Below are positions 19,058 to 49,190 of a DNA stretch of 64,000 bases, one piece after another (the stretch's first letter is position 1; every line of letters starts with the position of its first letter). The notes beneath the pieces are model-generated. The model saw only the letters and a list, made by a program, of their open reading frames with translations. It ran no database searches and had not been told where the DNA came from. Where the stretch lies: the NCBI RefSeq assembly GCF_001870225.1, contig NZ_CP017675.1, positions 617,036 to 681,035 on the forward strand, in the 5' to 3' direction. The DNA comes from Gloeomargarita lithophora Alchichica-D10 (lineage in GTDB: Bacteria; Cyanobacteriota; Cyanobacteriia; Gloeomargaritales; Gloeomargaritaceae). The position numbers and the translations under genes were made by a program.

Positions 19058-20935
19058 CTATCTTCCTGGCGACAATGGAAACACCTGAATTGCTCCCTGG
19101 CTTCTGAGTTCATCAACAAATCTCTTGCGCGGGTCTTGCGTTGCTCCGAATACCGTGACTACTTGATAATTTTTATCTTCTACATTGGCAATCCAAATAG
19201 GGGAGGGCTTCGCTGTTGAGCCGCACAAGAAACGATCGTAGCTTCCGTTAGTCTTAAACATGCGATCATGCAAAACGGCTAAGGCATGGCTTTTGTTGCC
19301 TTGAGAATCTCCCTGAAAGATCAAAATTCGGCAGTGTTGATCAGCAACTTCTACCCAGGGATTGTCGTTTGGTGGAGAAACTTCTAGTAAGTTGCAGTTG
19401 TTAATGGAAATAGTCGTCAGTGTAGCCAAGTTTTGATAAAAAGATGTAAGTCTTTGTTGAAAGAATCGCACAAATTCTTGGGGATAATCCGGGACTTGCC
19501 AAAAATCTTCATCGTTGAAAGGCATGAGATCGCAACCACGAATTCTTGGATTCCCCTGTCGCTCATAGTAAGGACGACGCGCACCTTGTCCAACGCCTCC
19601 CAAACGAAACATAAGCCAACACAGGTCTTTACAGAAAGTCTTGAAAGAATTTTCTTGAAATTCCGGCAGAGAGTTTGTAGTGAATAAACGTAATATCCCA
19701 CTTTGTTTTTTGCGATTGTTTGTTGGGGAATCGATTTCCTTAACACGAACACATAACCATCCCCAAGTTGGCTCTGGCTCAATTCCTCCAAAAATCTGTA
19801 CCTCAAGCGTCCTGACTTGGTGAGAAGGCAAAACACCACGCGCAAAGATGCGAAACCAATAGCGCATCATATTTTTGAATGCGACTGGACGGACTTCGGC
19901 AATAGACTTATTGTCATACCTATTTTTATCTGCTCTCCAAGTAACTGTTTGCCGCCCGTGAATCAACTGTCCTTCCAATTCAAAATTCAGCCGTAAAAAT
20001 TCATGAGGATTATTTTGTTGTTGACCAGATAACAATCGCCCATAACCTGAATTAGTTTGCGAACCAATCCCTTGACCTAGACCTTTGATTAGCCATTTTT
20101 TAACCATTGCTAATATCTCATCCGTACAATTAGTTCCTTTGCGAATGCCAATTAAAAATTTTACTTGCTTCAGGGAAAAAAATACATTGGGATTAGGGCT
20201 ATATTTCAAGTTATCATCATCCCAACTCCAGATACTATTAGCAATATCTACTGCCAGACCACCAGAGTTTGATTCATTTGTGACTATAGGATAAGCATCA
20301 AAAAAGATAACCTTTCCGGTTTTATGTTTATCTTCAGCGTCTAAATCACCTAAATACTTAGCCATTTCCTTTTTAGCTTGGGAGCGGGACATCCCTTGTT
20401 CCATAAATTCACGAATTCCCTGTGCTCGTGCGACTCCCCGCAGCGTACTCGATGGAATATAGGGCATTCCCAACGCATCAAAAGCCGGTAATAACATACT
20501 CTCTGGACCTTTAGTTCCCCCAACTCGAATCCGCCACGGGCAAGTCACTATAAATGTATTACTATTTCCCGCAATCAAACAAGTACGGACATTCATTTGG
20601 TTTAGTCTTTCAGTATAGTTTGCCTGAGTTTCAGCTTTACTCACCAATTGAACTTGTGTTCCTTCTTTATGTTGAATAGAAGGTGCCCTCATCCAGCGTA
20701 AGTATTCAACGAAGCTGGCCGTTTTATGGGGCTGGGGATTGGGGTCAGATGGGTGTCCTAACCACGGTGACGGTTCAGGGTTATTAGGAGCAGGATTATT
20801 ACCACCACCTCCCTGACCACCGCCACGATTATTACCTTGATTACCGCCACTACGATTAGCTGGCTGTTGGGGACGATTATTATTTGTGGGTGGTTGATTT
20901 GGTCGCTGCGGACGTTGTAAATAGGGATTGGTCAT
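19058..20935 (-). CDS. Fused Cmr6-Cmr1-like RAMP protein, locus A
   Basis: A 625-residue type III RAMP protein. Residues 1-55 are low complexity rich in Asn, Gln and Gly. The first RAMP unit is Cmr6-like: MPYIPSSTLRGVARAQGIRE, GKVIFFDAYPIV and the glycine-rich loop GLGQGIGSQTNSGYGRL. The second unit is Cmr1-like: EVRPVAFKNMMRYWFRIFA, then LEVQIFGGIEPEPTWGWLCV. Both subunits would cap the crRNP next to Cmr4 and Cmr5. A similar fusion is found at 39219. The model resembles TIGR03986-type RAMPs. Start overlaps the stop of the upstream Uma2 gene (ATGA). Confidence 0.85.
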   Translation of the reverse strand: MTNPYLQRPQRPNQPPTNNNRPQQPANRSGGNQGNNRGGGQGGGGNNPAPNNPEPSPWLGHPSDPNPQPHKTASFVEYLRWMRAPSIQHKEGTQVQLVSKAETQANYTERLNQMNVRTCLIAGNSNTFIVTCPWRIRVGGTKGPESMLLPAFDALGMPYIPSSTLRGVARAQGIREFMEQGMSRSQAKKEMAKYLGDLDAEDKHKTGKVIFFDAYPIVTNESNSGGLAVDIANSIWSWDDDNLKYSPNPNVFFSLKQVKFLIGIRKGTNCTDEILAMVKKWLIKGLGQGIGSQTNSGYGRLLSGQQQNNPHEFLRLNFELEGQLIHGRQTVTWRADKNRYDNKSIAEVRPVAFKNMMRYWFRIFARGVLPSHQVRTLEVQIFGGIEPEPTWGWLCVRVKEIDSPTNNRKKQSGILRLFTTNSLPEFQENSFKTFCKDLCWLMFRLGGVGQGARRPYYERQGNPRIRGCDLMPFNDEDFWQVPDYPQEFVRFFQQRLTSFYQNLATLTTISINNCNLLEVSPPNDNPWVEVADQHCRILIFQGDSQGNKSHALAVLHDRMFKTNGSYDRFLCGSTAKPSPIWIANVEDKNYQVVTVFGATQDPRKRFVDELRSQGAIQVFPLSPGR

Positions 20936-21582
20936 TTCATTACCTCTTGGATTATGGTTCTTAAATTCACTTCAGCTTGAATTTCGTCTTCTCTCGCCTC
21001 GTCTAAAAAACGATAGATAATATCCTTTGTTAATTTTGGAAATGAGGGACTAATTTCAACTTCTTCATAAGCATTTTTTTGCAGGGTATAGAATTTTATT
21101 TTTTCTCCATCAAACTGCCAAAACTCAGGAATGTTCATTGAGCTATAAAGTGCTAATTTATTGATTTTACTTGGAGAAATATCCACTTCTACCACTAAAT
21201 CTGGAGGCGGATCAGTCATGAAATTAACCCTACGCCCCTTTACTTTGGGTTGATTCGCCAAGTAATAGGCATTATCCGGCTCTGCGCCCCGGTCTAAATT
21301 GGGGTAGTCGAGACGAGATGATCCCATAGTTTTGAGTTTTTGACCCATTTCTGAAACAAGACAGACAATTAAACGTTCAATCATCCGCACAAAAAACTCG
21401 TGGGTTTCAAAGGGCATAGAAATCTCCAATGTACCTCGGTCATAGACCAATCGAGTTGCACGAGTTTCACCAATTGCCTCGTGAATCTTGAGATAGCCAT
21501 CCCAAGGAATATCCTGTAACAAAACCCGCTGTTCTAAAATCAAGTCACTAATTTTATGAACTGAAGATATAACCATAATCAA
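20932..21582 (-). CDS. Uma2 family putative endonuclease in Cmr operon
   Basis: A 216-residue Uma2 protein between cmr5 and cmr6/cmr1. The core is DPPPDLVVEVDISPSKINKL, then ALYSSMNIPEFWQFDGEK, with PD, E and K kept. It is a paralogue of the gene at 17840. Both ends overlap neighbours by four bases (ATGA), so it is translated in step with the Cmr genes. This arrangement argues against a recent casual insertion. Confidence 0.9.
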   Translation of the reverse strand: MIMVISSVHKISDLILEQRVLLQDIPWDGYLKIHEAIGETRATRLVYDRGTLEISMPFETHEFFVRMIERLIVCLVSEMGQKLKTMGSSRLDYPNLDRGAEPDNAYYLANQPKVKGRRVNFMTDPPPDLVVEVDISPSKINKLALYSSMNIPEFWQFDGEKIKFYTLQKNAYEEVEISPSFPKLTKDIIYRFLDEAREDEIQAEVNLRTIIQEVMK

Positions 21583-22073
21583 TCCTCTCCCCTCACATCA
21601 TGGTAAATGGCACTCACCCAAAAGCTAAATTCACGGGCAATTTCTAAGCCAAGACCAGTCAGGCCAAGGTACTCATCAGCATTCAAGGTTTTCAAAGCAT
21701 CCAAACTTAAATCTTCCTTTCCTGAAATCTCTTTCAAACACTCAAAAAACTTCTTCACGGGGTCTTCTCGACCATCTTTAAGAATGGTTTCTTCTGCTTT
21801 CAAACGCATCAAACCCCAGGTGGAAAGATAGGTGTAAAGCTCCTGAGCCATGCTTTTTTGTTTTTTGAGCTTGGCTTGATCAGTTGTGTCAGTTTTGAGG
21901 GTATTCAACTTTTCATAAACAGGCGTTCCTAGAGTGCGTGGATCGAATGTCATAGCTTCATTTTTTGGTTGAGGTGGGTGAGCAATAGGGGCAACAGGCA
22001 CCGAAGAAACTACAGAGGTTGATGGTGGATTTGGTTTAGGAAATTGAGAATTGGGTCTATTCTTCTTAGACAT
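21579..22073 (-). CDS. cmr5: Cmr5-like small subunit, locus A
   Basis: A 164-residue, mostly helical protein, the small inner-filament subunit of the Cmr complex. Residues 1-50 are Pro/Ser/Val-rich and probably disordered. The rest is helical (AQELYTYLSTWGLMRLKAEE, GLGLEIAREFSFWVSAIYHD), as in Cmr5/Csm2. The ATG at 22073 (MSKKNRPN) overlaps the previous stop as TAATG, so the longer frame to 22115 is not needed. Assignment rests on operon position between cmr4 and cmr6 and on helical character more than on sequence. Confidence 0.7.
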   Translation of the reverse strand: MSKKNRPNSQFPKPNPPSTSVVSSVPVAPIAHPPQPKNEAMTFDPRTLGTPVYEKLNTLKTDTTDQAKLKKQKSMAQELYTYLSTWGLMRLKAEETILKDGREDPVKKFFECLKEISGKEDLSLDALKTLNADEYLGLTGLGLEIAREFSFWVSAIYHDVRGED

Positions 22074-22744
22074 TAGGATTCCTCCGAAGATAGGGATAAC
22101 TGCTGGTTGAACCACAAAGCCGCTGAAATATTCGAGCCGCTTTTCATCTGTTCTATCGCTTGAGATAAAAGAGCCTCAGTAAAACCTGTTACTATCTGAG
22201 AACTTTCAGTCCTTAAGTATCTCTGATCTTGCAAAATAAAGATAAATACTTGAGTACCCTGGGCATCAATCACCCAATACTCAGGGATACCTAGTGCGGC
22301 ATAAAGGTACTTCTTTTGATCCAAATCGGAATCTAAAGTAGTATCAGCAACTTCGATCACTAGATTGGGTGAACGCTGTTGGTCAAGATTGATTTTTCTT
22401 GATTCTCCTTTTCGATATTGGGGTAAATCTTCTCCTAAGTACAAGGCAATATCAGGAGCGGCGGCTTGTTGGCTCTCTTTTTCCATCAGACAACTTCCCA
22501 AAATTTTAGATTTAATTTCAGGGTGAGCCATTAGCCACATCACTAAAATCGCCGATAGAAGTTCACGCACTTCTGAATGTAAAATTCCTTCCCAGCCCAT
22601 ATTTTCTACCAAAAGTTGATGGTTGTGAAAAAACAATTGCATCCGGTCAATAGAGGGGTCATCTCGGAGTTTTTCGTAGTCCTGCCAAGTAGCGGGATGC
22701 CATTGGGATTGAATCATATTAGGTTTATCTACAGAGATCATCAT
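22073..22744 (-). CDS. Uma2 family protein with altered PD motif, in Cmr operon
   Basis: A 223-residue Uma2 protein, tandem paralogue of the gene at 22741: both begin around QWHPATWQDYEKLRD or QWYPATWQDYEKLRD and share LLVENMGWEGI. Here the core reads RSPNLVIEVADTT, so the usual PD has become PN; E and the following K (DLDQKKYLYAALG) remain. This may reduce or remove catalysis. It starts at the ATG at 22744, overlapping the upstream stop (ATGA), and its own stop overlaps the cmr5 start. Confidence 0.87.
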   Translation of the reverse strand: MMISVDKPNMIQSQWHPATWQDYEKLRDDPSIDRMQLFFHNHQLLVENMGWEGILHSEVRELLSAILVMWLMAHPEIKSKILGSCLMEKESQQAAAPDIALYLGEDLPQYRKGESRKINLDQQRSPNLVIEVADTTLDSDLDQKKYLYAALGIPEYWVIDAQGTQVFIFILQDQRYLRTESSQIVTGFTEALLSQAIEQMKSGSNISAALWFNQQLSLSSEES

Positions 22745-23412
22745 TGGCGTTCCCCCTGTTGCAATTGTTGTGAAAACCAAGCGGCGGCTTCCACATTGGA
22801 AATAGATACTTTTTCAAGGGTTTGATTTAGTAAATTTATCGGAAGCCCTGCTAAAATTTGGGAAGTTTCTATTTGTAAATAAATTCCTGTTTCCGAACGA
22901 TAAAAAGCAAAAACTCGTTTGCCCTTAATATCAATTACCCAATACTCTGGAATTCCTAATTTGGCATATATATCAGCTTTTTCTCGCATATCTATAGCCA
23001 GAGTTGTATCAGAAACCTCTCCGACTAAATCTGGAACTCGACATTGATTCAAATCAATGTAACGTCGTTCACCTTCCTGATAGATAGGTGCATCCTCACC
23101 CACATAAACAATTAGGTCAGGAGCGGCGGCTTGTTTATCTTTCTTTTCTAGTAAACACCCACCCATAAGCGTTGCGGTTTGTTCTGAAAATTGACTGAAC
23201 CATAGATAAAAAATCATGCTAAAAAGTTCTCGCACCTTAGCATGGTTGATGCCTTCCCAGCCCATATTTTCTACCAGGAGTTGATGATCATGAAAAAATA
23301 ACTGCGCTCGCTCAAAAGATTCAACATCACGGAGTTTTTCGTAGTCCTGCCAAGTAGCGGGATACCACTGGGAATATTGGGCAGTTTGCTGCTTATCCAA
23401 AGAAACCGTCAT
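22741..23412 (-). CDS. Uma2 family putative endonuclease in Cmr operon
   Basis: A 223-residue Uma2 protein, first of a tandem pair. The core is VPDLVGEVSDTTLAIDM, then REKADIYAKLGIPEYWVID, with PD, E and K present. The ATG at 23412 overlaps the cmr4 stop (ATGA), and its stop overlaps the next Uma2 start. The pair looks like a local gene duplication that has since diverged strongly. Confidence 0.9.
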   Translation of the reverse strand: MTVSLDKQQTAQYSQWYPATWQDYEKLRDVESFERAQLFFHDHQLLVENMGWEGINHAKVRELFSMIFYLWFSQFSEQTATLMGGCLLEKKDKQAAAPDLIVYVGEDAPIYQEGERRYIDLNQCRVPDLVGEVSDTTLAIDMREKADIYAKLGIPEYWVIDIKGKRVFAFYRSETGIYLQIETSQILAGLPINLLNQTLEKVSISNVEAAAWFSQQLQQGERQ

Positions 23413-24251
23413 GATTGTCCCTCCTGCGTCACACTTTCAATCATCAATTGCACAAAACCACGCCCTAGACTCTCTTGACCGCCAATTTGAAGTACTTCGG
23501 AACGCTGCAAAAGTTGTTCAAACCCCTGGCGTGCTTCGGTACTCGTTCCATTAGCTTGAGCAGTAATTCCCCAAGGGAAATACATCAAAGCATCGGGGGG
23601 AATGGCTTCTTCATAGCGAAACCCACCATCAACTGTCTTGTGTTCATCTAATTTTACTTTCACTTGTCGCCAAAGGCTCATTTGCACGATGGTGGCACAA
23701 TGTTTGTCTGCCAGCACCAATACGTGATTAATTCCTCCCGATTCATTCAGTCCAGGAACGGCTTTTTCCCCTTGTTCCCAATCGTTCCATATACTCAAAT
23801 TTTCTCTCTTCAAAATGGCATCTTTAAGATACACGTTGCCAGTGCCCGCAATATTGGTAGAATTTTCGGCTGGAATCGTCAGTTTTGAACCGGACAATCG
23901 CACCCAGCGCCGCAACAACATCGGACTGGTCACCCACACCACCCCATGACTCAGCGAGGGCACAGGAATCCACAGAATTGAACCATCGCCAATCCAGACG
24001 GCACCTTGTTCTAATTGTTCTCCGTCAGCAATTTCATTGCCAAATAAATAGAATCTTTTCGATTTCTCTTTACCATTGATTTCAATCTTTTCGTTACCAG
24101 GAACACTTGATCGCAAACGACCTCTAATGGTGCTGGATGGAATGTAGGGCAAATTGGTGTGGGACTCGCGGGCAATACCCAGCAAATTTCCTTCTTGAGT
24201 GGTTCCTCCAGTGTGTAAAGGGGAGAGTAAAATCAAGTGAACAACATACAT
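23409..24251 (-). CDS. cmr4: Cmr4-like RAMP backbone subunit, locus A
   Basis: A 280-residue RAMP (Cas7 group). The start MYVVHLILLSPLHTGG, the YIPSSTIRGRLRS stretch and the C-terminal loop GGQESLGRGF are typical of Cmr4, which lines the crRNA and normally cuts target RNA every six bases. In usual Cmr4 the loop before RERHTxxPYIPGSS carries the catalytic Asp (GxxDxPxxRE). Here that stretch is EGNLLGIARES with no Asp. The ATG at 24251 starts 2 bases after cmr3; a longer frame to 24314 would overlap it. Confidence 0.88.
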   Translation of the reverse strand: MYVVHLILLSPLHTGGTTQEGNLLGIARESHTNLPYIPSSTIRGRLRSSVPGNEKIEINGKEKSKRFYLFGNEIADGEQLEQGAVWIGDGSILWIPVPSLSHGVVWVTSPMLLRRWVRLSGSKLTIPAENSTNIAGTGNVYLKDAILKRENLSIWNDWEQGEKAVPGLNESGGINHVLVLADKHCATIVQMSLWRQVKVKLDEHKTVDGGFRYEEAIPPDALMYFPWGITAQANGTSTEARQGFEQLLQRSEVLQIGGQESLGRGFVQLMIESVTQEGQS

Positions 24252-24253
24252 TA

Positions 24254-25928
<1,675 letters not shown>

Positions 25929-25930
25929 GG

Positions 25931-28900
25931 TTATTGCTCCTTAAGTTTAATATGACGATTGCGTAAGTTAAAAGCGGCTAGTTTGAGCCAGTTTTGAATT
26001 TGCATATCTCGATCCTTATTTGGGGTATATTTCCAAAGATGTTGGAGAAAATTGACTAAATTGCTCTGAAAGTTTTGTTTACTCTCTCCATCTTTTTTGA
26101 ATACATCCCGCCGGTCACAGAATAATTGTACCCAAACAGGAATAGCTTCAGAAATTGGCGCAGGATGCTGTTCCCAAAGTTGGGCGGCCTGTTCCAAAAC
26201 AGCAGGTTCTAAATCAGGAAGACCTAACAAACTCTTCCAGTGCTGAAAAGTATCAAATTTACTGGTAGCTTTGAGGATATTGCCATTTGCATAAAGAACT
26301 TGCACCTGTACAGCATCTTTTTTGTTTGCATGATCGTATTCATGTTGCTTTGCTTCTTTCTCCGCTTTCCACAGGTTTTCTAAGGCAATCGCCAACGGTA
26401 CAGACTGATGGGCAATGACAATGCCGAAGCTAATTGTAGCGTCAGAACCCATGGTAAATAAGGGACGTTGGCTCAATCCTTTGGGTAAATCTTCTCCCTC
26501 CCATTGCCAATAATTTCCCTGATGATTAAATTCCTTACCAGGATCATCTTGACCTCTAAAACATTGACGAATATCCCATAACCACTGATCCCATTCCCAT
26601 AGGTTTGTATATGCCAGCACATCATCGCCACCACCATAGATTAACCGCCCTGCATAGCGTTGTTCCGTTAAATAGGGCACTAATTGATTGGAAAAATCGA
26701 GCAATGCCCGACTCAACGCATTATGAGTAGATGGCCCCATGCGTTTTTTGAGTTCTTGGTCTTTAACAAATTCACTAAATGAATCCTTAACTTCTTCAAG
26801 TTCTTGAGGCTTAAACACATAACCAATTTGCTGCTTGTGACCATCAGCAAGATTTTTCAGTGGTGTGGGCAAATAGTCATAATATCCTTTCATTTTTGTA
26901 CCCTTGAGCCATTCACTCATGCTGTCGCCATCCCCTGCGGCTAACACATACCAATTAGCAGGATTCGCACCAGAATAATACTCACTGAGAATCTGATTAA
27001 TATCCTGTTGATCTTCTTTCTTTGTTTCCTCATCTACGTCCGCATCTTCAACTAACCAACCCGCATTAAGCAATCTAGGATGATAACGTTGAACCTGAAC
27101 ATCAGCCCAAGGGATTCCCCATTTGCCTCGCATTTGATGGATTACATTATTGACCCAAGGGTATTTTTCTTTGATTTTTTGACAAACTGCTTCAAAGTTT
27201 CGCTTGTGTTTTTGATCCTGGCTATGAACCTTGAGATAACCTGCTACGCCAGCCGTTAAATCAGGATATGAAGCCTCAATTTTATCCTGATCAAGCCCAG
27301 GAAATAAACTAGGCAAAATCTTATGTAAACCTCGTTTTACTGTTTCCGTCGCATTAAGTTGTTCTCTGCCATCAAATAACCCCGAATTTCTTTGCCAGAT
27401 TCCTTGACTTTCCCCTTCTGTAATCCATTGATTACTCTGTGAGGGATGCACCACTGAGCCAATGCCAGAAATGGTACTACGGGAGCCAAAAGCCACGGGT
27501 AATTCCCAGTCACGGGCATTTTTACAAGCGGCTTGTACTCGCCGGGTTTCATCCACCACCGCCGCCCACCAGGAACCGATATTAACTCCAGGTTTATACT
27601 GACGATGATTGCCATTTTTATCTAAAAAACTTTCCCGCAAAAATGCTAATTCTTTCTCTAAAAATAGTCGCTGTTTATCAGTCAGGTGATAGGTTTTATT
27701 CTGTTGTTTTACCCAAGGGTCATTATCTATAACATCTTTAGAGTGTAAAATGCCAGTATCCTTAAGTTTTTGATTCGGACTACCCAATGGAACTGCGGCC
27801 CAATAATGTTGCCATTGATGGTCTAACCAGCCCTGCCAGGTTAAATCCGCTTCGGATAATTGAGGCATCCAATGTCTTTCGGTTTTGAGAAAATCAAATA
27901 CTGAATCCGCTAATGTTTGCCATTCTTCTTGTAAAGTCTGCTGAGCCATTTGCATAGCGGCTTGTACCTTATCTTCGGGTAACAGTACCATGATCACGTT
28001 AGGAAATCCTGCTGTTAGCAATTTTTGTGCTGATGGTTTGTTGATCCATGCTGCAAAATCTGAATATTTCTCTAGCAACCAATAATCAATCAAAGGCTGA
28101 GCATATAAACTGGGATAAAGCAAACAATCTGCCCCGTATTTAACCGCCAATTTCCAACAAATTTTGGCTGATAGATAATGCAATACCCAAGACCCTGCCC
28201 AAAAATCTCGCATTTTGCGGCTGGCTTTGATTAACTCTTGAATCGGACTAAAGGTAAAACTCGCCAAATAGGGACGGGTTTTCTGAGGGCTACCATATCC
28301 TGCTAAGCACCCTGCTAGAGCAGAAGTGATACTGGCATGACTCCAAATTGAACCATCCGGCAAACGAGTCTCCGCAGGCATAAGCATCAGACTATCATCG
28401 TTAAATTTTCGACAAATCGCATCGGGAAAACACCGCCAAAACCACCAAAATACCTTTTGGGGATCGGTTTCATTTTTGATCTCAGCGGGAATAACTGATT
28501 CTTCCCGTTGCCGTAAATGCTCAGCCCGATTACTCGCTAGGTGTAAGTCTCGATGCTCATCCGGTTGCAGTTGCCAGAAAATCTTCTCTGCGGATAATAA
28601 ATGAGCAATCTCTAAGCCAGTCCCTAATGTTAAACCCCGGTCAATGGTTTGATAATCAATTGCCGTACTTAAATGACCAATGGCTGAGCGGTCACTGGCA
28701 GAAGCAATTAAATCCGCATCACCAATATATTTCTGATAATCAGAGGCATGACTAGATTTGGGAGAAACCCAATTTTGCATTACATTTAATTGCGGCCAAA
28801 CACCCTCCCCACTTCGCCCTGACCCATCATGTAACGCTTTTAGCGCCGGGTCATGCAATAACCCCCAGATTTTCGCTTGCCAGTAGTGGTGTTGAGACAT
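25931..28900 (-). CDS. cmr2: Cas10 (Cmr2) with HD and GGDD domains, locus A
   Basis: The 989-residue large subunit of a type III-B complex. The N-terminus has the permuted HD nuclease motif (KIWGLLHDPALKALHD, His16-Asp17) for ssDNA cutting. Two palm domains follow: the first with AGDGDSM (about residue 656), the second with RLIYGGGDDVLA (about 756). The intact GGDD predicts synthesis of cyclic oligoadenylate on target RNA binding. The region ASFTFSPIQELIKASRKMRD aligns with the first residues of the shorter Cas10 at 35518. First effector gene after the array. Confidence 0.95.
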   Translation of the reverse strand: MSQHHYWQAKIWGLLHDPALKALHDGSGRSGEGVWPQLNVMQNWVSPKSSHASDYQKYIGDADLIASASDRSAIGHLSTAIDYQTIDRGLTLGTGLEIAHLLSAEKIFWQLQPDEHRDLHLASNRAEHLRQREESVIPAEIKNETDPQKVFWWFWRCFPDAICRKFNDDSLMLMPAETRLPDGSIWSHASITSALAGCLAGYGSPQKTRPYLASFTFSPIQELIKASRKMRDFWAGSWVLHYLSAKICWKLAVKYGADCLLYPSLYAQPLIDYWLLEKYSDFAAWINKPSAQKLLTAGFPNVIMVLLPEDKVQAAMQMAQQTLQEEWQTLADSVFDFLKTERHWMPQLSEADLTWQGWLDHQWQHYWAAVPLGSPNQKLKDTGILHSKDVIDNDPWVKQQNKTYHLTDKQRLFLEKELAFLRESFLDKNGNHRQYKPGVNIGSWWAAVVDETRRVQAACKNARDWELPVAFGSRSTISGIGSVVHPSQSNQWITEGESQGIWQRNSGLFDGREQLNATETVKRGLHKILPSLFPGLDQDKIEASYPDLTAGVAGYLKVHSQDQKHKRNFEAVCQKIKEKYPWVNNVIHQMRGKWGIPWADVQVQRYHPRLLNAGWLVEDADVDEETKKEDQQDINQILSEYYSGANPANWYVLAAGDGDSMSEWLKGTKMKGYYDYLPTPLKNLADGHKQQIGYVFKPQELEEVKDSFSEFVKDQELKKRMGPSTHNALSRALLDFSNQLVPYLTEQRYAGRLIYGGGDDVLAYTNLWEWDQWLWDIRQCFRGQDDPGKEFNHQGNYWQWEGEDLPKGLSQRPLFTMGSDATISFGIVIAHQSVPLAIALENLWKAEKEAKQHEYDHANKKDAVQVQVLYANGNILKATSKFDTFQHWKSLLGLPDLEPAVLEQAAQLWEQHPAPISEAIPVWVQLFCDRRDVFKKDGESKQNFQSNLVNFLQHLWKYTPNKDRDMQIQNWLKLAAFNLRNRHIKLKEQ

Positions 28901-29312: not shown

Positions 29313-30736
29313 GTTTCCAACTAATCCAATTAACGCATTGGAAGCGAGACTTCGAGTTGACTAGCGAAAGCGAAGACATCTTACGTTTCCAACTAATCCA
29401 ATTAACGCATTGGAAGCGAGAAGACGCCCGCCAGCGGATCACTGATGTTCGGTTCAGTTTCCAACTAATCCAATTAACGCATTGGAAGCGAGGACAATCC
29501 ATATAAACGGGTATGACCTACCCGGTTTGTTTCCAACTAATCCAATTAACGCATTGGAAGCGAGCAGCGATCACCGGAAAGTGATCGCAACAAAGGGTTG
29601 GGTGTTTCCAACTAATCCAATTAACGCATTGGAAGCGAGTTGAAAAGGCGTGGGCGAAGCTACTGTATGGCCTTAAGTTTCCAACTAATCCAATTAACGC
29701 ATTGGAAGCGAGCGTTACAACCAAGGAAGCCCTGGTGACCCCAGGGATGTTTCCAACTAATCCAATTAACGCATTGGAAGCGAGACTTCGAGTTGACTAG
29801 CGAAAGCGAAGACATCTTACGTTTCCAACTAATCCAATTAACGCATTGGAAGCGAGAAGACGCCCGCCAGCGGATCACTGATGTTCGGTTCAGTTTCCAA
29901 CTAATCCAATTAACGCATTGGAAGCGAGATTCTTGAGTTTGACCGGCTTGGAATGCTCTGTGATTGTTTCCAACTAATCCAATTAACGCATTGGAAGCGA
30001 GAAGGGTGCCCGAGGGTACCCTTTGGGGGGACGTAGTGTTTCCAACTAATCCAATTAACGCATTGGAAGCGAGATTTCAACAAAATTCAATTCAAGATTG
30101 ATGGACATGTTTCCAACTAATCCAATTAACGCATTGGAAGCGAGAGGACACAGAGAAATCGTCACGCCCTGCAATCAAATCTTGTTTCCAACTAATCCAA
30201 TTAACGCATTGGAAGCGAGTTGCCTTTCAAGGTGACGATTGCGTGATCTTGATCGAGTTTCCAACTAATCCAATTAACGCATTGGAAGCGAGGCCGCATC
30301 CGCTCCGTCCGGGTTTACTTCCGCACCTGGTTTCCAACTAATCCAATTAACGCATTGGAAGCGAGCGCACGCGCAAGCGTGGGGGTATCGAGCTGACGTA
30401 TGTTTCCAACTAATCCAATTAACGCATTGGAAGCGAGCGGGTAATCGTTTTCACCAACGAGGCCGGTCTGCGCGCCCAGTTTCCAACTAATCCAATTAAC
30501 GCATTGGAAGCGAGTGGTAGCCTCGTCTCTTTAGAGCGGGAATTGTCAATTCGTTTCCAACTAATCCAATTAACGCATTGGAAGCGAGAGAGGTGGACTT
30601 GCAGGAGCTGCGGGAGCAATCCCGCGTTTCCAACTAATCCAATTAACGCATTGGAAGCGAGACGACTACTGACTGGCAAGGCTGTCAGCCAGACAGCCCG
30701 GTTTCCAACTAATCCAATTAACGCATTGGAAGCGAG
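29313..30736 (-). CRISPR. CRISPR array 1: 20 repeats, 19 spacers
   Basis: Repeats are 36 bases and appear identical. On the plus strand they start GTTTCCAACT and end GGAAGCGAG, so in the sense of the cas genes they end in TTGGAAAC, like array 2. Spacers are about 35-41 bases. Minus-strand transcription is inferred from that end and the downstream cas10. Spacers at 29349-29384 and 29421-29456 recur exactly at 29785-29820 and 29857-29892. The distal end cuts a Csx2-like gene. Confidence 0.98.
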
Positions 30737-32847: not shown

Positions 32848-33129
32848 TCAAGCCACAGTTGAACCCGGCGGCTCCGCTAATGGCCGACCACCCCAAATGA
32901 TAATTTGCCCCAGCGCATAGGGAGGAATCGGATAAAATCGCACACTGTCCTCTGCCATTTTGATACGTTTTTGTAATCGCTTTTGTAGTTCGGCTAATTT
33001 CCCTTCCGATAACCGGCATTCAAAGACGCTATACTGCACCCTTTGACCATAACCTTCCAATAGTTCTGCCACCTTACGCCGCCGCCGATTTGATGGTATA
33101 TCATAGCTCACGACAATCAGCCGTTCCAT
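32848..33129 (-). CDS. cas2: Cas2, locus A
   Basis: A 93-residue ferredoxin-fold Cas2, the partner of Cas1 in spacer acquisition. It has ERLIVVSYDIPSNRRRRKVA at the start, GQRVQYSVFECRLSEGKL, and SVRFYPIPPYALGQIIIWGG at the end. The ATG at 33129 starts 2 bases after the cas1 stop; an in-frame TTG lies two codons upstream. Its sequence is clearly different from, but parallel to, the Cas2 at 53074. Confidence 0.95.
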   Translation of the reverse strand: MERLIVVSYDIPSNRRRRKVAELLEGYGQRVQYSVFECRLSEGKLAELQKRLQKRIKMAEDSVRFYPIPPYALGQIIIWGGRPLAEPPGSTVA

Positions 33130-33131
33130 GC

Positions 33132-34109
33132 TCAATCAATTTGATAGGGCGTATAAACATAATCCATATCCAAAACTGCCCGCCGATACTGTTTCACCTG
33201 TTGTACCAATAATTCCCACCGCAGACCCTGACCCGCTTTGGTTTCCATCCGCCGAATCCAGGCTTGTAAGAAAATACGCTTCCCGCCGTCATTCAAGAAA
33301 CAACCCCCATTGCGATATTCAAAATCCCGTTCTGCCCGCACTTCCTTAGTATTAATCAAACTTAAAACTAAACTATCAACCAAAGAAGCCCGAAACTCCT
33401 CAATCAAATCCGAAACCAAGCCCAAATGCCCATGATGATCCGTGTGCAAAGTCCCCACCCTGGGGTCAAGCCCCTGCAACTCCACCAACAGCAATACATG
33501 ATTCCACAACACCTGATACCCAAAACTCAGCAGGGCATTCACCGGATTCGCCGGGGGTCGCCGGGAACGTCCCACAAACACAAACCCCTCCCCCCGCAAA
33601 CATTCCCCCAAAGCTGGGAAATAAATGGCCGCCGCCGCCCCCTCCATCCCCCGTACTTGGTCTAGGGTCTGGCATCGCCCCACCCGTTCCGCCAACCATT
33701 GCAGGGAATCAATCACCCTTTCCGCCCCAATTATCCCATAACGCCGGTAATGACGTAATAACACTGTACGACTATTGCGGATTTTGGCACGCACCATCAC
33801 TGCCGCCATTTGTACTTGCCAGGCCAGGGCGGTTTGCCTTTGGGCCACATAGCACACCCCAGACCCCCAGCCCACCGGCAACGTTCGCCCGTAACACCAA
33901 CCACTGCGGGACAGATAGGCCAAGGGAATGTTATGACGCAAACACGCCCTTACCGCCTGGGTAGTCATTTGCACCATGCCCAAGAGCATGACCGCCTCCA
34001 GTAGCGGCAATTGCCCGACACATCGCCTTTGCTCTCCCCGACGTAAATGCAGTTGTTCAGCGGACACCACTAAGACCGCTCCCTGTTCGACCACATACAA
34101 AGTTCGCAT
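33132..34109 (-). CDS. cas1: Cas1, locus A
   Basis: A 325-residue integrase of the adaptation module. The three metal-site regions are present: Glu in GMEGAAAAIYFP, His in GTLHTDHHGH, and the acidic DLIEEFRASLVD. NPVNALLSFGYQVLWNHVL is the usual central helix. Its ATG follows the stop of the small membrane protein with no gap (TAAATG), so the two are coupled. Paralogue at 52083. Confidence 0.96.
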   Translation of the reverse strand: MRTLYVVEQGAVLVVSAEQLHLRRGEQRRCVGQLPLLEAVMLLGMVQMTTQAVRACLRHNIPLAYLSRSGWCYGRTLPVGWGSGVCYVAQRQTALAWQVQMAAVMVRAKIRNSRTVLLRHYRRYGIIGAERVIDSLQWLAERVGRCQTLDQVRGMEGAAAAIYFPALGECLRGEGFVFVGRSRRPPANPVNALLSFGYQVLWNHVLLLVELQGLDPRVGTLHTDHHGHLGLVSDLIEEFRASLVDSLVLSLINTKEVRAERDFEYRNGGCFLNDGGKRIFLQAWIRRMETKAGQGLRWELLVQQVKQYRRAVLDMDYVYTPYQID

Positions 34110-34415
34110 TTATAACCAGGGGTCACGCTGGCGCAGGGATTCCGAAACCCGCTCAATGTCGGAGGTCATGGGCTGTTGTCCCGGCGATATTATTGAAGAA
34201 TTCGGCATCAACCAGAAACATACCCCATCCATCACCGTTGCCGTCAGCCACGTTGCCCCGGTGACCATCAGCGTATTGGTCAGCACCGCCGCCAACCCCA
34301 AGGGGGCAATCAGCAAAACAATCAGGGTAATGGTGCCGTTGACTACCGCCAATACTAAATTTCGCACCTGCAACTGCCGCACATGCAGAACCAACCACGT
34401 CCCCTTGCGAGCCAT
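34110..34415 (-). CDS. Small membrane protein coupled to Cas1, locus A
   Basis: A 101-residue protein starting at the ATG at 34415 (MARKGTWLV), which has GAGG 10 bases upstream. One or two membrane segments centre on VVNGTITLIVLLIAPLGLAA, and a second hydrophobic stretch precedes a hydrophilic tail. The same segment occurs in the protein at 51820, also directly before a cas1: about 26 of 35 residues are identical from VRNL to the TNT region. I recognise no family. The repeated position suggests a role in adaptation or in placing the adaptation complex at the membrane. Confidence 0.75.
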   Translation of the reverse strand: MARKGTWLVLHVRQLQVRNLVLAVVNGTITLIVLLIAPLGLAAVLTNTLMVTGATWLTATVMDGVCFWLMPNSSIISPGQQPMTSDIERVSESLRQRDPWL

Positions 34416-34840: not shown

Positions 34841-34842
34841 GA

Positions 34843-35517: not shown

Positions 35518-36993
35518 ATGACCTTCACCGTGATGACCTTTGCCCCCGTCCAGGGCTTCATCGAGCGTTCCCGCAAATTGCGTGACTTGTACGGTAGTTC
35601 CTTCATCTTGTCCCACCTCGCCCGTGCCCTCTGCGAAGCCGGACAGTCAGAACTTGGGGGTGCAGACACTTTAGTTTCACCCGCTTTGATCAACGTTACC
35701 CAGGGGACTCCCAACCAGATCATTCTTGCCGGAAATTTCCCTGAAATTCAAGGGCGGCGGGCACTTTTGAAAGCCTGGAAAGAAATTGTGGATCAATGTC
35801 GCACCTGGATTGAAGCGCAAATCCCCGCCGAATATACCTGGAAGCGGCACTGGGAACTATGGGGCAACCACGCCTGGGAATTTTTCTGGGGGCAGGGAGA
35901 AACCATCACGGCGGCACGGGAAGAGATCAACCGAGCGAAGCGCAGTCGGGATTGGGTGGGCATCAACTGGCAGGGAGAAAGTTCCACGCTATCCGGTGCC
36001 GATGCGATTGCTTGGCCGGGGCTGGGACGCAAACGGGATAGCCGAGACATCCGCCTGGGTGAGGATGATCGGGAAATTAGAGAATTTTATAAAAAATTAC
36101 AATCCTTAACTGTGCTGGGCGAGGCTTTTGTGGATGCCACCGAGCAACTCAGTATTCCAGAGCTAATTAAACGTCTCGTCACCTATCATGTGGTCGCCAA
36201 ACGGATCGGCATTCAAGGGGAAGTCCCGGATAGTTTTCGGGATATTAAACTCCGGGAGCAAAGAACGTTTTGGTTCGCTGGGGATGGGGACAAAATCGGT
36301 GAGTATTTTCGGCAACTCAAGGAAAACGGCCAGGATGAAAGCACAGCACTCCGCCAGTTCAGTCAAGCCATGCTGGAATGGGGAGAAAATACCTTAAAAC
36401 CAGCCGTAGATGGCAAACTTGGCCGGATTGTTTATGCGGGTGGGGATGATTTTCTGGGGGTTTTATACCCAGCAGATACCCATGCCTTTTCCCCCCAAGC
36501 GTCCCTGGCGTGGTTTTATGAACGGTTCCCCCAGATTTGGCGGCAACATGGGCAAGATATTAAAGTGAGCGTGGGAGCAGTTCTAGCGGGCAAACAAGTG
36601 CCCCAACGGGATATTTTGCAACAGGCGCGGGAAGCGGAAAAATCTGCTAAAAAACAAGGCCGTGACCGCATTGCCCTGCGGGTTTTATTCAACGGGGGCA
36701 ATCACATCGAATGGGTATGTCCCTGGGATTTTTTACCACCCATATTTGCCAACTATCATGACCGGGATAATGGCAAGAACTGGACGCATATTTATAATGA
36801 CGTGGCGGTTTTAGCATCCCGGCGAGGGTTGGCGAGTCCTGCTGTGGCTTTCGCCCTATTTGAAGTTTATTTTGGTGCCGAAAACCGCCAAACATTAGAG
36901 CAAAATCCCAGTCATTACATTGGCACCGCCAGCGTCTCCGATTGGGTCAATAACTTAGCACAGGTGGGATTTCAACTATGTTCCAATACCTAA
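35518..36993 (+). CDS. cmr2: Cas10 (Cmr2) without HD domain, locus B
   Basis: A 491-residue Cas10 lacking the HD nuclease domain. The first residues (MTFTVMTFAPVQGFIERSRK) align with an internal point of the 989-residue Cas10 at 25931. Both palm motifs are present: FAGDGDKIGEYF (about residue 254) and RIVYAGGDDFLGVLYP (about 307), so cyclic oligoadenylate synthesis is expected. ssDNA cutting is not. The 280 bases before it (35236-35517) hold no recognisable gene and probably its promoter. Confidence 0.93.
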   Translation: MTFTVMTFAPVQGFIERSRKLRDLYGSSFILSHLARALCEAGQSELGGADTLVSPALINVTQGTPNQIILAGNFPEIQGRRALLKAWKEIVDQCRTWIEAQIPAEYTWKRHWELWGNHAWEFFWGQGETITAAREEINRAKRSRDWVGINWQGESSTLSGADAIAWPGLGRKRDSRDIRLGEDDREIREFYKKLQSLTVLGEAFVDATEQLSIPELIKRLVTYHVVAKRIGIQGEVPDSFRDIKLREQRTFWFAGDGDKIGEYFRQLKENGQDESTALRQFSQAMLEWGENTLKPAVDGKLGRIVYAGGDDFLGVLYPADTHAFSPQASLAWFYERFPQIWRQHGQDIKVSVGAVLAGKQVPQRDILQQAREAEKSAKKQGRDRIALRVLFNGGNHIEWVCPWDFLPPIFANYHDRDNGKNWTHIYNDVAVLASRRGLASPAVAFALFEVYFGAENRQTLEQNPSHYIGTASVSDWVNNLAQVGFQLCSNT

Positions 36994-37958
36994 TCACCCT
37001 AGAGCCTTTGGGCTTTTTGTATGGGAGTGCGGGACGTTTTCTGTCCCCGGATAATTTGGTAGGCCGTGCCGGGGTTACCTTTCCCCCCAGTGCCGCCACT
37101 GTATCGGGTTTATTTGCCGCCCATTACGGTGTCGAAGCCATGACAGCGGATAAAAACTGGATGTTTGCCGGGCCGTTTTGGAGCCTGATGGAAAACCCCC
37201 AGGATTTCTACGTTCCTACACCTATGAATTGTTTGGTTAAAGCCGGTAAAATTGAGCATATTTTGCATTGCAATAACAAAACCTGGGAACCAGCAATCAG
37301 CGGTAAATTTGACCAACGAGGTTGGCTCCCAATTAGCTGGTGGTTGGAGATAAATTCAGGGCAAAAAGTTGAGCCTGACCCCTGGGAATTTGCCCCGCAT
37401 TTACACCCCCGTTTGGAATTAGACCAACGCCGGGTACAAGCCAACGAAACCCAAGGGAGTTTGTTCCTGGAAAATGCGGTGATGCTCAAACCCGGAGTTT
37501 GTTTGGCCTACCTCAGCAGTCATCCCTTACCTGCGGGTTGGTATCGCTTTGGGGGCGAAGGGCACCTCGTAGATGGGCAATGCCATGACCTGCACGCAAG
37601 CACCCTGGAACTTTTGCAAAAACCGGCGGGTAAAAACTTTGCCACCATTACCCCTGGCCTATGGGGTTCCAACCGGCTGTCCACCCGTTGGCCGATGCAG
37701 GAGGGAGACCAACCCATTTGGCCTGACCCCGTTGTGCTGACCGAACGTCCCCAACCCTACCGCTATCGCCTGGGGGGAACCGGCACCGGTCGCCGCTTAT
37801 CGAGAGGCCGTTATGCCGTACCCGCCGGTACGGTTTATGTACTGCAAAAATCCCTTGACCCCTGGCACACTTGGCCTGAGACGTGGTTTCCCAAGGAGGG
37901 TTATTCCCTCAAACGCTGGGGTTGTGGCCTGTCGTTACCTTTACCAAACTTAAACTAG
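36978..37958 (+). CDS. cmr3: Cmr3-like RAMP subunit, locus B
   Basis: A 326-residue Cas5-group RAMP. It has LEPLGFLYGSAGRFLSPDNL and FPPSAATVSGLFAAHYG at the N-terminus, glycine-rich RFGGEGHLVDG in the middle, and YAVPAGTVYVLQ near the end. It overlaps the end of cas10 by 16 bases. The homologue in locus A is longer by about 50 residues. Confidence 0.88.
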   Translation: MFQYLITLEPLGFLYGSAGRFLSPDNLVGRAGVTFPPSAATVSGLFAAHYGVEAMTADKNWMFAGPFWSLMENPQDFYVPTPMNCLVKAGKIEHILHCNNKTWEPAISGKFDQRGWLPISWWLEINSGQKVEPDPWEFAPHLHPRLELDQRRVQANETQGSLFLENAVMLKPGVCLAYLSSHPLPAGWYRFGGEGHLVDGQCHDLHASTLELLQKPAGKNFATITPGLWGSNRLSTRWPMQEGDQPIWPDPVVLTERPQPYRYRLGGTGTGRRLSRGRYAVPAGTVYVLQKSLDPWHTWPETWFPKEGYSLKRWGCGLSLPLPNLN

Positions 37959-37966
37959 GAGCATTT

Positions 37967-38791
37967 ATGTATCACAAAGCCTACGGCATCATTGAAACCC
38001 TCGCACCCCTCCATGTGGGAGCCAGCGCCGGGGAAGAAATGGGCAATTTGAATTTGATCTTTCGGGATCAATTCACCCAAACTGGCATCATTCCCGGTAG
38101 CTCAATTCGGGGACGATTTCGAGCTGATATGCGCTCCGGTGCAAATAAAGGTGATGTGAATCAATGGTATGGACACGAAGCCGTAGCAGGGCAATCCGAT
38201 GGCGGTACCACCGAAGCTTTAGTGAAATTTGAGTATGCTTCATTGGTGTGGTTCCCGGTATTTTGTCCAGGGCAACCCGTGGTCTGGGTTTCTTGTCCTC
38301 GGTTGCTGAAACGCTATCAGATGATTATCGGTGGCGATGCTAAGATTCCCCAACCCTATACGGCGGACAATAGCCTGCAAGCCAAGCAATTTAGCGAACA
38401 AAAAACAACCCGTAAAATTCTATTTTTCAACCTGGGTTTTATGGAAATCGAACACACGCAAGATATGCAATCCTGGATTCCCCAAGGGAGTAGCCTCCAA
38501 AAAAATAGCCTCGTGGTTGTTGGTGACAATGATATTGCCATGCTTCATGACATGGGATTGTATCGGCAAAGCCGGGTCAAACTGCAAGATGATATGAAGA
38601 AAGTCGCCGGGGGAGCATTTTTTAATGTAGAAGCAATTCCTGAGGGCAGTGTTTTCATTTTCCCGGTTGGTCTTAAAGAAATAGGGTGGAATCCTTTTGT
38701 CACTGAAGCTGAACAAGAAATGTACTTTGGTGGGTTAGAATCCGTTGGTTTTGGTCGGTGTCGGGTTACTTTAGCAGGAGCATATCAGTAA
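37967..38791 (+). CDS. cmr4: Cmr4-like RAMP backbone subunit, locus B
   Basis: A 274-residue Cas7-group RAMP. It starts MYHKAYGIIETLAPLHVGAS, has GIIPGSSIRGRFRADM, and ends with GGLESVGFGRCRV. The loop that carries the catalytic Asp in standard Cmr4 reads MGNLNLIFRDQ here, without Asp at the expected place, as in locus A. The ATG at 37967 has AGGAG 5 bases upstream; a longer frame to 37883 overlaps cmr3. The stop overlaps the cmr5 start (TAATG). Confidence 0.88.
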   Translation: MYHKAYGIIETLAPLHVGASAGEEMGNLNLIFRDQFTQTGIIPGSSIRGRFRADMRSGANKGDVNQWYGHEAVAGQSDGGTTEALVKFEYASLVWFPVFCPGQPVVWVSCPRLLKRYQMIIGGDAKIPQPYTADNSLQAKQFSEQKTTRKILFFNLGFMEIEHTQDMQSWIPQGSSLQKNSLVVVGDNDIAMLHDMGLYRQSRVKLQDDMKKVAGGAFFNVEAIPEGSVFIFPVGLKEIGWNPFVTEAEQEMYFGGLESVGFGRCRVTLAGAYQ

Positions 38792-39183
38792 TGGCTTGGC
38801 ATACTTACGGTTTGGATCAAGAAGCCCAAAAACTGGTTTTAGCGGCAAAACGTCGGGATCAGGAATCGCTCAATCAAGGTTACAAAATGCGGATGGCTGT
38901 GGCCTATGGGTTGGAACGTTTTTGGGGTGAACATTTGCGTTTACAGGAGCGGGAAGCCCAAAAATCTCGCTACTGGAAAGAGACATGGGACACCCTGGTT
39001 CGCATTGCTGGACAAGCCCATATCACCATACCAAATGATGCCGTTAGACCTGATAACGTCCAACAAATCCAAGCCATGTCAGAAAGGCTGTGGGGATTAA
39101 ATTTGGCAGACCAACGGGTTGCCCTAGCCGTACTCACGCAACTGTGTGATTGCATGGTCTGGTGGACACAACGGTACAAGTAA
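38791..39183 (+). CDS. cmr5: Cmr5 small subunit, locus B
   Basis: A 130-residue helical protein matching Cmr5: LDQEAQKLVLAAKRRDQESL, then YKMRMAVAYGLERFWGEHL and DQRVALAVLTQLCDCMVWW. The ATG at 38791 overlaps the cmr4 stop. It lacks the Pro-rich N-terminal extension seen in locus A. Confidence 0.85.
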   Translation: MAWHTYGLDQEAQKLVLAAKRRDQESLNQGYKMRMAVAYGLERFWGEHLRLQEREAQKSRYWKETWDTLVRIAGQAHITIPNDAVRPDNVQQIQAMSERLWGLNLADQRVALAVLTQLCDCMVWWTQRYK

Positions 39184-39218
39184 TTATCACTTTTTTACCC
39201 TTCACTTTGGAGCCAATC

Positions 39219-40877
39219 ATGCCCCCTATTCCCGATGTGATTAATAAAGTCCCCATGATGTACCGGGCGCAGGTTACTGGACGGTGCCAATTACAGCGTT
39301 TGGTGCCTAAAGCGGAGGAACAACACGCCCAAAGGTGGACAAAAGAATGGACGGAACGCAGCTACCCCCACCCACCCCAATTCAGCCAAAATGTCCAAAC
39401 TCGCAGTTACAGTATTAGTTGGCGATTTGTGACCAATGCGGGTCAGGATGATGGGATTATCCGCCCGGTGATGGGGGCAAGGGGATGGCCTTTCTATCCG
39501 GGCAGTAGTATGAAAGGCTTATTTCGGAGTGCCTGTAATCCCCAGCAAAAAGCCCGTTACTGTGGTCAAGAATTACCCGGCGGGGATATGGCTCCCGGAA
39601 TTTTACGCTTCCACGGGGGTTATCCAACGAATAAAAAATGGGTGGAAAAACTCCTGGATTTAGTCCACCCCCAACAGGATTATCAAGTCAAAAGAGGGAA
39701 TGCCAATCATTCAGCATTTATGATGATTTCCCTATACCAACCAGAGTTAAATTTTGGTATCTCCAGTAGTGAGGATTTATCCCCTCAAGAGTGGACGGAG
39801 ATTTGGCAGATTTGGGAAAAAGCGATGGCGAAAGGATTGGGTAGCCGGGTTTGTGCCGGATATGGACATCCCAGTAGTATCAGTGGCGATGAACTTTATC
39901 CCCCGCATCGTATTCATGGACGGGGTATGGCTTCCAAGACCCTCAGTGGAGCCGAATTTCGTCCTAATATATTTCGAGCCGCCATCCGGGGTCATGCCCT
40001 ACGAATTTTTGGTGGTTTAGTCCCTGCCCCTATCGCCGAACGGGAAGTAGATAAGCTATTCGGGGGGCTGGGAAGTAGAGAACCGATTGTAGGTTTGGTG
40101 GGCATGAAATTTGTCGCAGATGACTTAAACATTGACAGACACGGTCGTGGTCGTTTTGAAGTCCGCACCTATGATGTCACCGGACAACTGAGTTGGTTAT
40201 TGACTCGCCCCTTACCTGATGTGCAACGGGAAGCCTTGAAAAACTTGATACTCAGGTTAAATCAATTTGCCATGATTTTGGGGGGATTTGGTAAGTCCTG
40301 GCGACGCATTGACCACCCCTTTTTCTTTGAGGAATACTACAATCACCCCAATAAATCCTACATTGGTTGTCATTGGGAATGGATAGATAAATTCAAACGG
40401 GATGTTCAAATTGCCGCACCGAAACATCTGGAACAATTTATGAATAATCGGCTATTACCATCTGTAAAAGAGTGGCTAAAACTCCAAGGGGTTAATCTGA
40501 ACAGCCAATACGCCCAGGAGTGGCGGGAAACCTGGCACACAGCAAAAGTCCAAGTGTGGGGACGCATCGCTCAAAACCAAGAAGATTCTATCGCAGTCAA
40601 ATGGTTTCATCAGCCCTACTACAGCGACAATAAACAAGGCATTAGAAATAGTATTAAAGGGACTTCCATAACAGGGAGATTAGGCACGATTGGCCGCATC
40701 TGGCATCGGATGTATCCCCAATTCAAGTTTTCTCAAGGTGACACACCAACAAAAACAAGGGGATATGTTGAATTGATCACGATCTTTCCAGACCAATCTC
40801 CTGAGTGCAGACAGTTTTTAACCTTCTTACAACAAGAGCAACAGGACTTCCAACGAGTTTGGCCGCTGAACAATTAA
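39219..40877 (+). CDS. Fused Cmr6-Cmr1-like RAMP protein, locus B
   Basis: A 552-residue RAMP fusion from the ATG at 39219 (MPPIPDVINKV), with GGAG 10 bases upstream. The Cmr6-like part has RGWPFYPGSSMKGLFRSACN, GILRFHGGYP and GLGSRVCAGYGHPS. The Cmr1-like part has EFRPNIFRAAIRGHALRIFG and a KLFGGLGSREPIVGLVGM loop. A helical tail and a final GTSITGRLGTIGRIWHRM follow. The same order of units as at 19058, without the Asn/Gln/Gly-rich head. Confidence 0.85.
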   Translation: MPPIPDVINKVPMMYRAQVTGRCQLQRLVPKAEEQHAQRWTKEWTERSYPHPPQFSQNVQTRSYSISWRFVTNAGQDDGIIRPVMGARGWPFYPGSSMKGLFRSACNPQQKARYCGQELPGGDMAPGILRFHGGYPTNKKWVEKLLDLVHPQQDYQVKRGNANHSAFMMISLYQPELNFGISSSEDLSPQEWTEIWQIWEKAMAKGLGSRVCAGYGHPSSISGDELYPPHRIHGRGMASKTLSGAEFRPNIFRAAIRGHALRIFGGLVPAPIAEREVDKLFGGLGSREPIVGLVGMKFVADDLNIDRHGRGRFEVRTYDVTGQLSWLLTRPLPDVQREALKNLILRLNQFAMILGGFGKSWRRIDHPFFFEEYYNHPNKSYIGCHWEWIDKFKRDVQIAAPKHLEQFMNNRLLPSVKEWLKLQGVNLNSQYAQEWRETWHTAKVQVWGRIAQNQEDSIAVKWFHQPYYSDNKQGIRNSIKGTSITGRLGTIGRIWHRMYPQFKFSQGDTPTKTRGYVELITIFPDQSPECRQFLTFLQQEQQDFQRVWPLNN

Positions 40878-49150: not shown

Positions 49151-49190
49151 AGATATAACAGAATTATTGATAGTTCCCGAGGAGGGGCAA

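What the first reader, a model, noticed from the sequence alone, without database searches (positions are those of the whole stretch)
34110..34415. Conserved small membrane protein directly before cas1 in both loci
This protein and the one at 51820 share about 26 of 35 residues over the membrane segment (LIAPLGLAAV then TNT), while their tails differ. Each stop touches the following cas1 start (TAAATG and TAATG). Two diverged cas1 genes keeping the same partner implies selection for linkage. A membrane-tied adaptation complex would be unusual.
Basis: partly seen in the sequence, partly recalled or inferred. Interest (0 to 1): 0.78.

Follow-up and report, generated by a model that had tools for sequence, protein, structure and literature searches.

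The report
Csx18, membrane partner of CRISPR Cas1
The two small membrane proteins next to this cyanobacterium's spacer-capturing genes are real, belong to a family already named Csx18 whose role is unknown, and across cyanobacteria are found almost only beside two types of the spacer-integrating gene cas1, which suggests (without proof) that they help place or control spacer capture at the membrane.

Summary
A 101-aa protein (34110-34415, minus) and an 87-aa protein (51820-52083, plus) share 26 of 35 core residues and abut or overlap cas1 starts. Both are Csx18 (NCBIfam NF040558; PADLOC 'adaptation associated'), so the family is already named; I found no paper on its function in the library searched. 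I tested the linkage. In 386 cyanobacterial genomes, 53 of 57 Csx18 matches lie beside cas1: 42 co-directional upstream and 11 head-to-head with a distant Cas1 clade. In a second, partly overlapping collection, 77 of 80 loci do. Conversely, 39 of 42 and 11 of 14 genes in those two Cas1 clades have Csx18, and none of the roughly 200 other Cas1 genes does. The two clades are not sisters. Csx18 is under purifying selection, is modelled as a two-helix hairpin turning at the conserved APLG, and has a disordered tail often ending in a short motif. Cas2 accompanies it in 47 of 49 loci, cas10 in 30. Best reading: a membrane subunit of the type III adaptation module that tethers or regulates Cas1-Cas2. 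The dedicated role is well supported; the tether is inferred. Synechocystis PCC 6803 carries both arrangements and is ready for the test.

The parts
34110..34415 (-). csx18 copy 1, 101 aa; predicted two-helix membrane hairpin with disordered C-terminal tail
   Evidence: NCBIfam NF040558 81.6 bits (cut-off 50), E 2.7e-23; PADLOC Csx18 1.8e-25; AF2 helices 5-36 and 41-69; dN/dS 0.16 against its congener
33132..34109 (-). cas1 copy 1, start codon directly after the csx18 stop
   Evidence: PF01867 E 6.3e-80; catalytic E, H and D of Cas1 invariant across the clade alignment (E156, H222, D234; residue assignment from general knowledge)
32848..33135 (-). cas2 copy 1
   Evidence: TIGR01573 E 1.5e-19
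51820..52083 (+). csx18 copy 2, 87 aa
   Evidence: NF040558 76.9 bits, E 8.3e-22; dN/dS 0.15
52083..53072 (+). cas1 copy 2, overlaps the csx18 stop by 1 nt (TAATG)
   Evidence: PF01867 E 2.4e-79; start 52083
53074..53352 (+). cas2 copy 2
   Evidence: TIGR01573 E 6.4e-18
51488..51817 (+). second small membrane protein directly upstream of csx18 copy 2; family without a name
   Evidence: no significant NCBIfam, Pfam or PADLOC match; homologues beside csx18 in Synechocystis CRISPR2 and several other loci
29313..30736 (.). CRISPR array 1 (about 20 repeats) of locus 1
53554..56010 (.). CRISPR array 2 (34 repeat copies) of locus 2, shortly after cas2
19058..28900 (-). type III-B effector genes of locus 1 (Cmr2/Cas10 25931-28900, Cmr3 24254-25378, Cmr4 23409-24314, Cmr6-like 19058-20935)
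35518..40877 (+). type III-B-like effector genes of locus 2 (short Cas10 35518-36993, Cmr4-like 37883-38791, RAMP 39150-40877)

Best explanation
Both genes encode Csx18, a dedicated membrane-protein component of the adaptation (spacer-capture) module of cyanobacterial type III CRISPR systems. Supported by computation: it is a conserved, purifying-selected protein that travels with cas1-cas2 of two specific Cas1 clades rather than with the effector. Predicted: a two-helix membrane hairpin, turning at the near-invariant IAPLGL motif, with a positively charged N-terminus and a flexible C-terminal tail. Inferred: N-terminus and tail lie in the cytoplasm, and the tail, often ending in a short [DN][IL]x[RKQ]-type motif, docks Cas1-Cas2. 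This would hold the integrase at the cytoplasmic or thylakoid membrane, where incoming phage or plasmid DNA is caught, or gate its activity there. Translational coupling (overlapping or abutting genes in about 40% of co-directional pairs) would match the amounts of anchor and integrase.
For: Family identity. Linkage of 53/57 and 77/80 to cas1. Reverse linkage of 39/42 clade-A and 11/14 clade-B Cas1 (against 23). Two of the clade-A exceptions carry a deletion remnant (L169) or a diverged look-alike (L171) of csx18 at the same place. The two Cas1 clades are separated in the tree by RT-Cas1, Cas4-Cas1 and other Cas1 lineages, and use two gene orders. cas2 accompanies in 47/49 loci, cas10 in 30/49. 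dN/dS 0.04-0.33 in 12 pairs. AF2 hairpin with low-confidence tail. N-terminal net charge +2.5 on average and tail motif in 35% of dereplicated sequences against 2% (max 10%) in shuffles.
Against: No interaction, localisation or acquisition data. The hairpin model has only moderate confidence (mean pLDDT 71, pTM 0.37). The tail motif was chosen after looking, is absent from most sequences in its strict form, and sequence relatedness inflates its significance. Some Cas1 genes stand with a truncated csx18 (L040), a deletion remnant (L169) or none (L170, L172-L175), so Csx18 is not strictly required for cas1 retention. A few csx18 stand without cas1 (L054 beside csx3, L129 beside an array, L145 beside a J-domain gene).
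Confidence: 0.45

Rival explanations
1. Csx18 regulates adaptation rather than anchoring a working complex: it senses membrane perturbation (infection, depolarisation) and releases or inhibits Cas1-Cas2, keeping costly self-spacer capture off in healthy cells.
For: Same linkage to cas1-cas2. Conserved polar residues (N26, T30, N47, T48, D63 of copy 1) lie in or at the ends of the predicted helices. Cas1 can persist without Csx18, as expected for a modulator.
Against: No sensor domain and no direct evidence; cannot be separated from tethering by sequence.
Confidence: 0.25
2. Csx18 is a membrane pore or abortive-infection effector that merely shares an operon with cas1, like Csx28, Csx23 or Cam1.
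For: Small helical membrane proteins of type III and VI CRISPR loci are often effectors (PMC10808066, PMC11014256, PMC12669027). Helix hairpins can oligomerise.
Against: It follows cas1-cas2, not cas10 (47/49 against 30/49 loci). No ligand-sensing domain. Restricted to two Cas1 clades. Loci with csx18 and cas10 but no cas1 are rare and mostly cut by contig ends.
Confidence: 0.15
3. Csx18 acts on biogenesis: it stabilises or co-translationally places nascent Cas1, or works in array maintenance, with no role in choosing prespacers.
For: Overlapping or abutting genes in 17 of 42 co-directional cases.
Against: Eleven copies are divergently transcribed from cas1, so translational coupling cannot be the general function.
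Confidence: 0.1
4. The linkage is hitch-hiking only: csx18 is a passenger inherited with cas1-cas2 cassettes.
For: Cassettes move as units; several intact cas1 genes lack csx18.
Against: Association in two non-sister Cas1 clades with different gene order, purifying selection, and absence from about 200 other Cas1 genes.
Confidence: 0.05

Closest known systems
Csx18 (NCBIfam NF040558; PADLOC PDLC01382 and PDLC01041, 'adaptation associated')
   Same: Sequence (over the curated cut-off), size, membrane core, position beside cas1, host phylum
   Different: Nothing that takes it out of the family; the two copies fall in the co-directional group, while the other group is divergently placed
Synechocystis sp. 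PCC 6803 pSYSA CRISPR3 (SGL_RS01055-cas1-cas2) and CRISPR2 (SGL_RS00955, divergent from cas1)
   Same: CRISPR3: same gene order and a 4-nt overlap with cas1, III-B effector nearby. CRISPR2: csx18 plus the same second membrane-protein family as window locus 2
   Different: CRISPR2 csx18 belongs to the divergent group beside a distant Cas1 and a csx19-containing type III effector cassette
Membrane effectors of CRISPR systems (Csx28, Csx23, Cam1, CorA)
   Same: Small or membrane-embedded CRISPR accessory proteins
   Different: Those go with effectors and (Csx23, Cam1, CorA) sense nucleotide signals; Csx18 goes with cas1-cas2 and has no sensor domain
RT-Cas1 and Cas4-Cas1 adaptation modules
   Same: Cas1 linked to a dedicated accessory function
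   Different: There the accessory is a cytosolic enzyme, often fused; in the sample no csx18 lies beside those Cas1 types

Membership tests
Csx18 | Score over the curated NF040558 cut-off (50 bits) | tested here: met
   81.6 and 76.9 bits; whole-genome search finds exactly these two in this genome
Csx18 | Adjacent to the adaptation genes cas1-cas2 | tested here: met
   gap 0 and -1 nt to cas1, cas2 next
Csx18 | Conserved IAPLGL membrane core | tested here: met
   L, I, A, P, G, L, V, T columns invariant in 22 sequences from both groups and in 70 mainly co-directional sequences
CRISPR membrane effectors (Csx28/Csx23/Cam1-like) | Ligand-binding (CARF or other) domain or activation by an effector nuclease | tested here: not met
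   101/87 aa with hairpin plus disordered tail only; no other domain match; effector partnership itself untested
CRISPR membrane effectors (Csx28/Csx23/Cam1-like) | Genetic linkage to the effector rather than to cas1 | tested here: not met
   cas1/cas2 more constant than cas10
Membrane-anchored adaptation complex | Physical contact with Cas1-Cas2 at a membrane | not testable with these tools
   needs pull-down and fractionation

The most novel reading that the evidence does not exclude
Type III CRISPR adaptation in many cyanobacteria is carried out by a membrane-bound Cas1-Cas2 complex, anchored by Csx18 (recruited by two independent Cas1 lineages) and sometimes joined by a second, unnamed membrane protein. 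Spacers would then be captured at the point of DNA entry.
Probability: 0.35. Interest if true: 0.8.

Novelty: new member of a known kind. Interest (0 to 1): 0.42.

Why it matters
Csx18 is a named but, as far as I could find, unstudied family. The data here turn 'adaptation associated' into a quantified rule: two Cas1 clades, two gene orders, cas2 kept, effector variable. They point to Synechocystis PCC 6803 (both versions on one plasmid) and Picosynechococcus PCC 7002 as ready test beds. If Csx18 does tether Cas1-Cas2, spacer capture would be spatially organised at the membrane, which would change how prespacer choice is understood.

Tried and rejected
Viral contigs hold no Csx18 relative. No PDB relative by profile. 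A fold search was not run because a single helix hairpin gives meaningless hits. Literature: no paper in the library uses the name Csx18 for this protein (the one hit is unrelated), and Synechocystis papers naming the neighbouring tags do not treat it (old tags guessed from memory). I considered a leader-peptide or translational-coupling device only; rejected because 11 copies are divergent and the protein is under purifying selection. I considered mirror-tree co-evolution of Csx18 and Cas1; not run because co-inheritance alone would give a correlation. The second membrane protein (51488-51817) was tested as an obligate partner and rejected: its homologues accompany only a minority of csx18 loci, and more distant ones (L189-L191) lie away from any cas gene found.

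Full report
OBSERVATION. The described gene is exactly where stated. On the minus strand, 34415-34110 encodes 101 aa and its TAA is followed directly by the cas1 ATG at 34109. On the plus strand, 51820-52083 encodes 87 aa and its TAA overlaps the ATG of the second cas1 by one base. The two proteins share 26 of 35 residues over the hydrophobic core. The local score is 139, against 34.9 +/- 6.9 when the membrane segments are shuffled with their composition kept. Both neighbours are Cas1, each followed by Cas2 and associated with its own repeat array. Locus 1 has a type III-B effector set; locus 2 has a short Cas10 with III-B-like RAMPs.

IDENTITY. Both score well over the curated cut-off of NCBIfam NF040558 'CRISPR-associated protein Csx18' (81.6 and 76.9 bits against 50) and match the two PADLOC Csx18 models, one labelled 'adaptation associated'. 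Pfam has no model. Public plasmids already carry the annotation, including Synechocystis PCC 6803 pSYSA and Picosynechococcus PCC 7002 pAQ6. So the family is known. No functional study was found in the open-licence library; that library lacks most subscription papers.

LINKAGE, FORWARD. The window lies in a complete 3.05-Mb cyanobacterial genome. Close relatives among the hits are Gloeomargaritales, so a Gloeomargarita-like host is likely (inference). In 386 cyanobacterial genomes there are 57 Csx18 matches in 47 genomes. I fetched all of them. 42 are co-directional, directly upstream of cas1 (two loci have tandem csx18 copies), with 17 of the 42 gaps at zero or less. 11 are head-to-head with cas1, ten at 88-218 nt and one at 700. 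Four are unlinked: two from one genome near contig ends without a start codon, one truncated, and one orphan beside csx3. In a second collection of bacterial and archaeal genomes (which shares some species), the best 80 relatives are all cyanobacterial and 77 lie upstream of cas1. The scan used the peptide pattern [IVL]L[LI]IAPLGL[AFM], so the phylum restriction holds only for sequences with that motif. No viral contig encodes a relative.

LINKAGE, REVERSE. Profiles of the two partner Cas1 groups, run over the same genomes, give 42 clade-A Cas1 genes (over 480 bits), 39 with csx18 directly upstream, and 14 clade-B genes, 11 with the divergent csx18 (against 23). Of the three clade-A exceptions, one carries a csx18 remnant with the core deleted (L169), one a diverged look-alike ending ..SLIAPVPLAILMNLAG.. 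(L171), and one nothing (L170). At least 257 Cas1 genes occur in these genomes. Since every csx18 is accounted for, none of the roughly 200 other Cas1 genes has one. This genome's own third, basal Cas1 (L172) also lacks it. In a maximum-likelihood Cas1 tree the two clades are not sisters: RT-Cas1-type, Cas4-Cas1-type and other Cas1 lineages lie between them (long branches are flagged by the program, so the deep order is unsure, but the two partner clades are separated by long, fully supported branches). Csx18 therefore joined or stayed with two Cas1 lineages in two gene arrangements.

MODULE. Within the fetched flanks cas2 is found in 47 of 49 linked loci and cas10 in 30 of 49 (single-sequence searches, so effector counts are minima; flanks differ in length). 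Csx18 thus belongs with adaptation rather than interference.

PROTEIN. Twelve close pairs give dN/dS of 0.04-0.33, so the product matters. The core columns L, I, A, P, G, L, V, T are invariant. The AlphaFold2 model of copy 1 with 70 aligned sequences shows helices 5-36 and 41-69 with the APLG at the turn and a low-confidence tail (mean pLDDT 71, pTM 0.37). The hydrophobic stretch reaches transmembrane values over both helices. The N-terminus averages a net +2.5 charge, so N-in/C-in is likely (inference). The tail varies, but 35% of 72 dereplicated co-directional-type sequences hold [DN][IL][DEQRHY][RKQ] within the last 16 residues, against 2% (at most 10%) in shuffled tails. The pattern was found by eye first, so treat it as a lead.

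MECHANISM. A hairpin anchor, a flexible linker and a short terminal motif are the anatomy of a tether. Together with the cas1-cas2 linkage this makes a membrane tether or gate for the integrase the most economical reading. Shown by computation: identity, linkage, selection, Cas1-clade specificity. Predicted: hairpin and topology. Inferred: docking of Cas1-Cas2, place of action, effect on spacer capture. Against strict need: intact cas1 beside truncated or absent csx18 (L040, L169, L170) shows that Cas1 genes can persist without it.

SECOND MEMBRANE PROTEIN. Directly upstream of copy 2 lies another small membrane protein (51488-51817) without a named family. A homologue (SGL_RS00960) overlaps the divergent csx18 of Synechocystis CRISPR2, and others lie near csx18 or its remnant in L052, L060, L078, L075, L097 and L169. 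More distant homologues lie away from detected CRISPR genes, so it is a recurrent, not an obligate, companion.

VERDICT. A real and strongly selected association, already captured by a family name, with its function open. New here, as far as I know, are the two-way linkage numbers, the two non-sister Cas1 clades with two gene orders, the tail motif and the companion protein. Membrane-tied adaptation stays a testable hypothesis.

Noticed in passing
window 51488-51817 (+); L087:9317-9652 (SGL_RS00960): Unnamed small membrane protein family (motifs Y-YTRRW and DN-AI--AR) beside csx18 in window locus 2, Synechocystis CRISPR2 and about six further loci; distant homologues elsewhere away from CRISPR.
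   Followed up: partly
window 30938-32059 (-); L145:5985-7115: A J-domain (DnaJ-like) protein sits between cas2 and array 1 of locus 1; in L145 the same kind of gene follows csx18 directly where cas1-cas2 are missing.
   Followed up: partly
window 29313-29492 and 29749-29928; 55395-55502 and 55829-55936: Identical blocks of repeat-spacer units occur twice within each array (180 nt and 108 nt, 100% identical), so spacers were probably duplicated by recombination within the arrays.
   Followed up: no
window 34571-35060 (-): A ribbon-helix-helix/antitoxin-like ORF (34571-34840) next to what looks like a BrnT-type toxin remnant upstream of csx18 copy 1.
   Followed up: no
window 48224-50688 (+): Csx3 fused to a second domain, and an HD-domain protein resembling the RelA/SpoT hydrolase part, upstream of csx18 in locus 2.
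   Followed up: no
L047:5995-6600, L049:5995-6607: Tandem csx18 pair before cas1; the downstream copy has lost the IAPLGL core (MPRLGTAAV).
   Followed up: no
L054:5914-6198 and L173: A genome whose divergent-type cas1 lacks csx18 beside it carries a diverged divergent-type csx18 elsewhere, next to csx3.
   Followed up: partly
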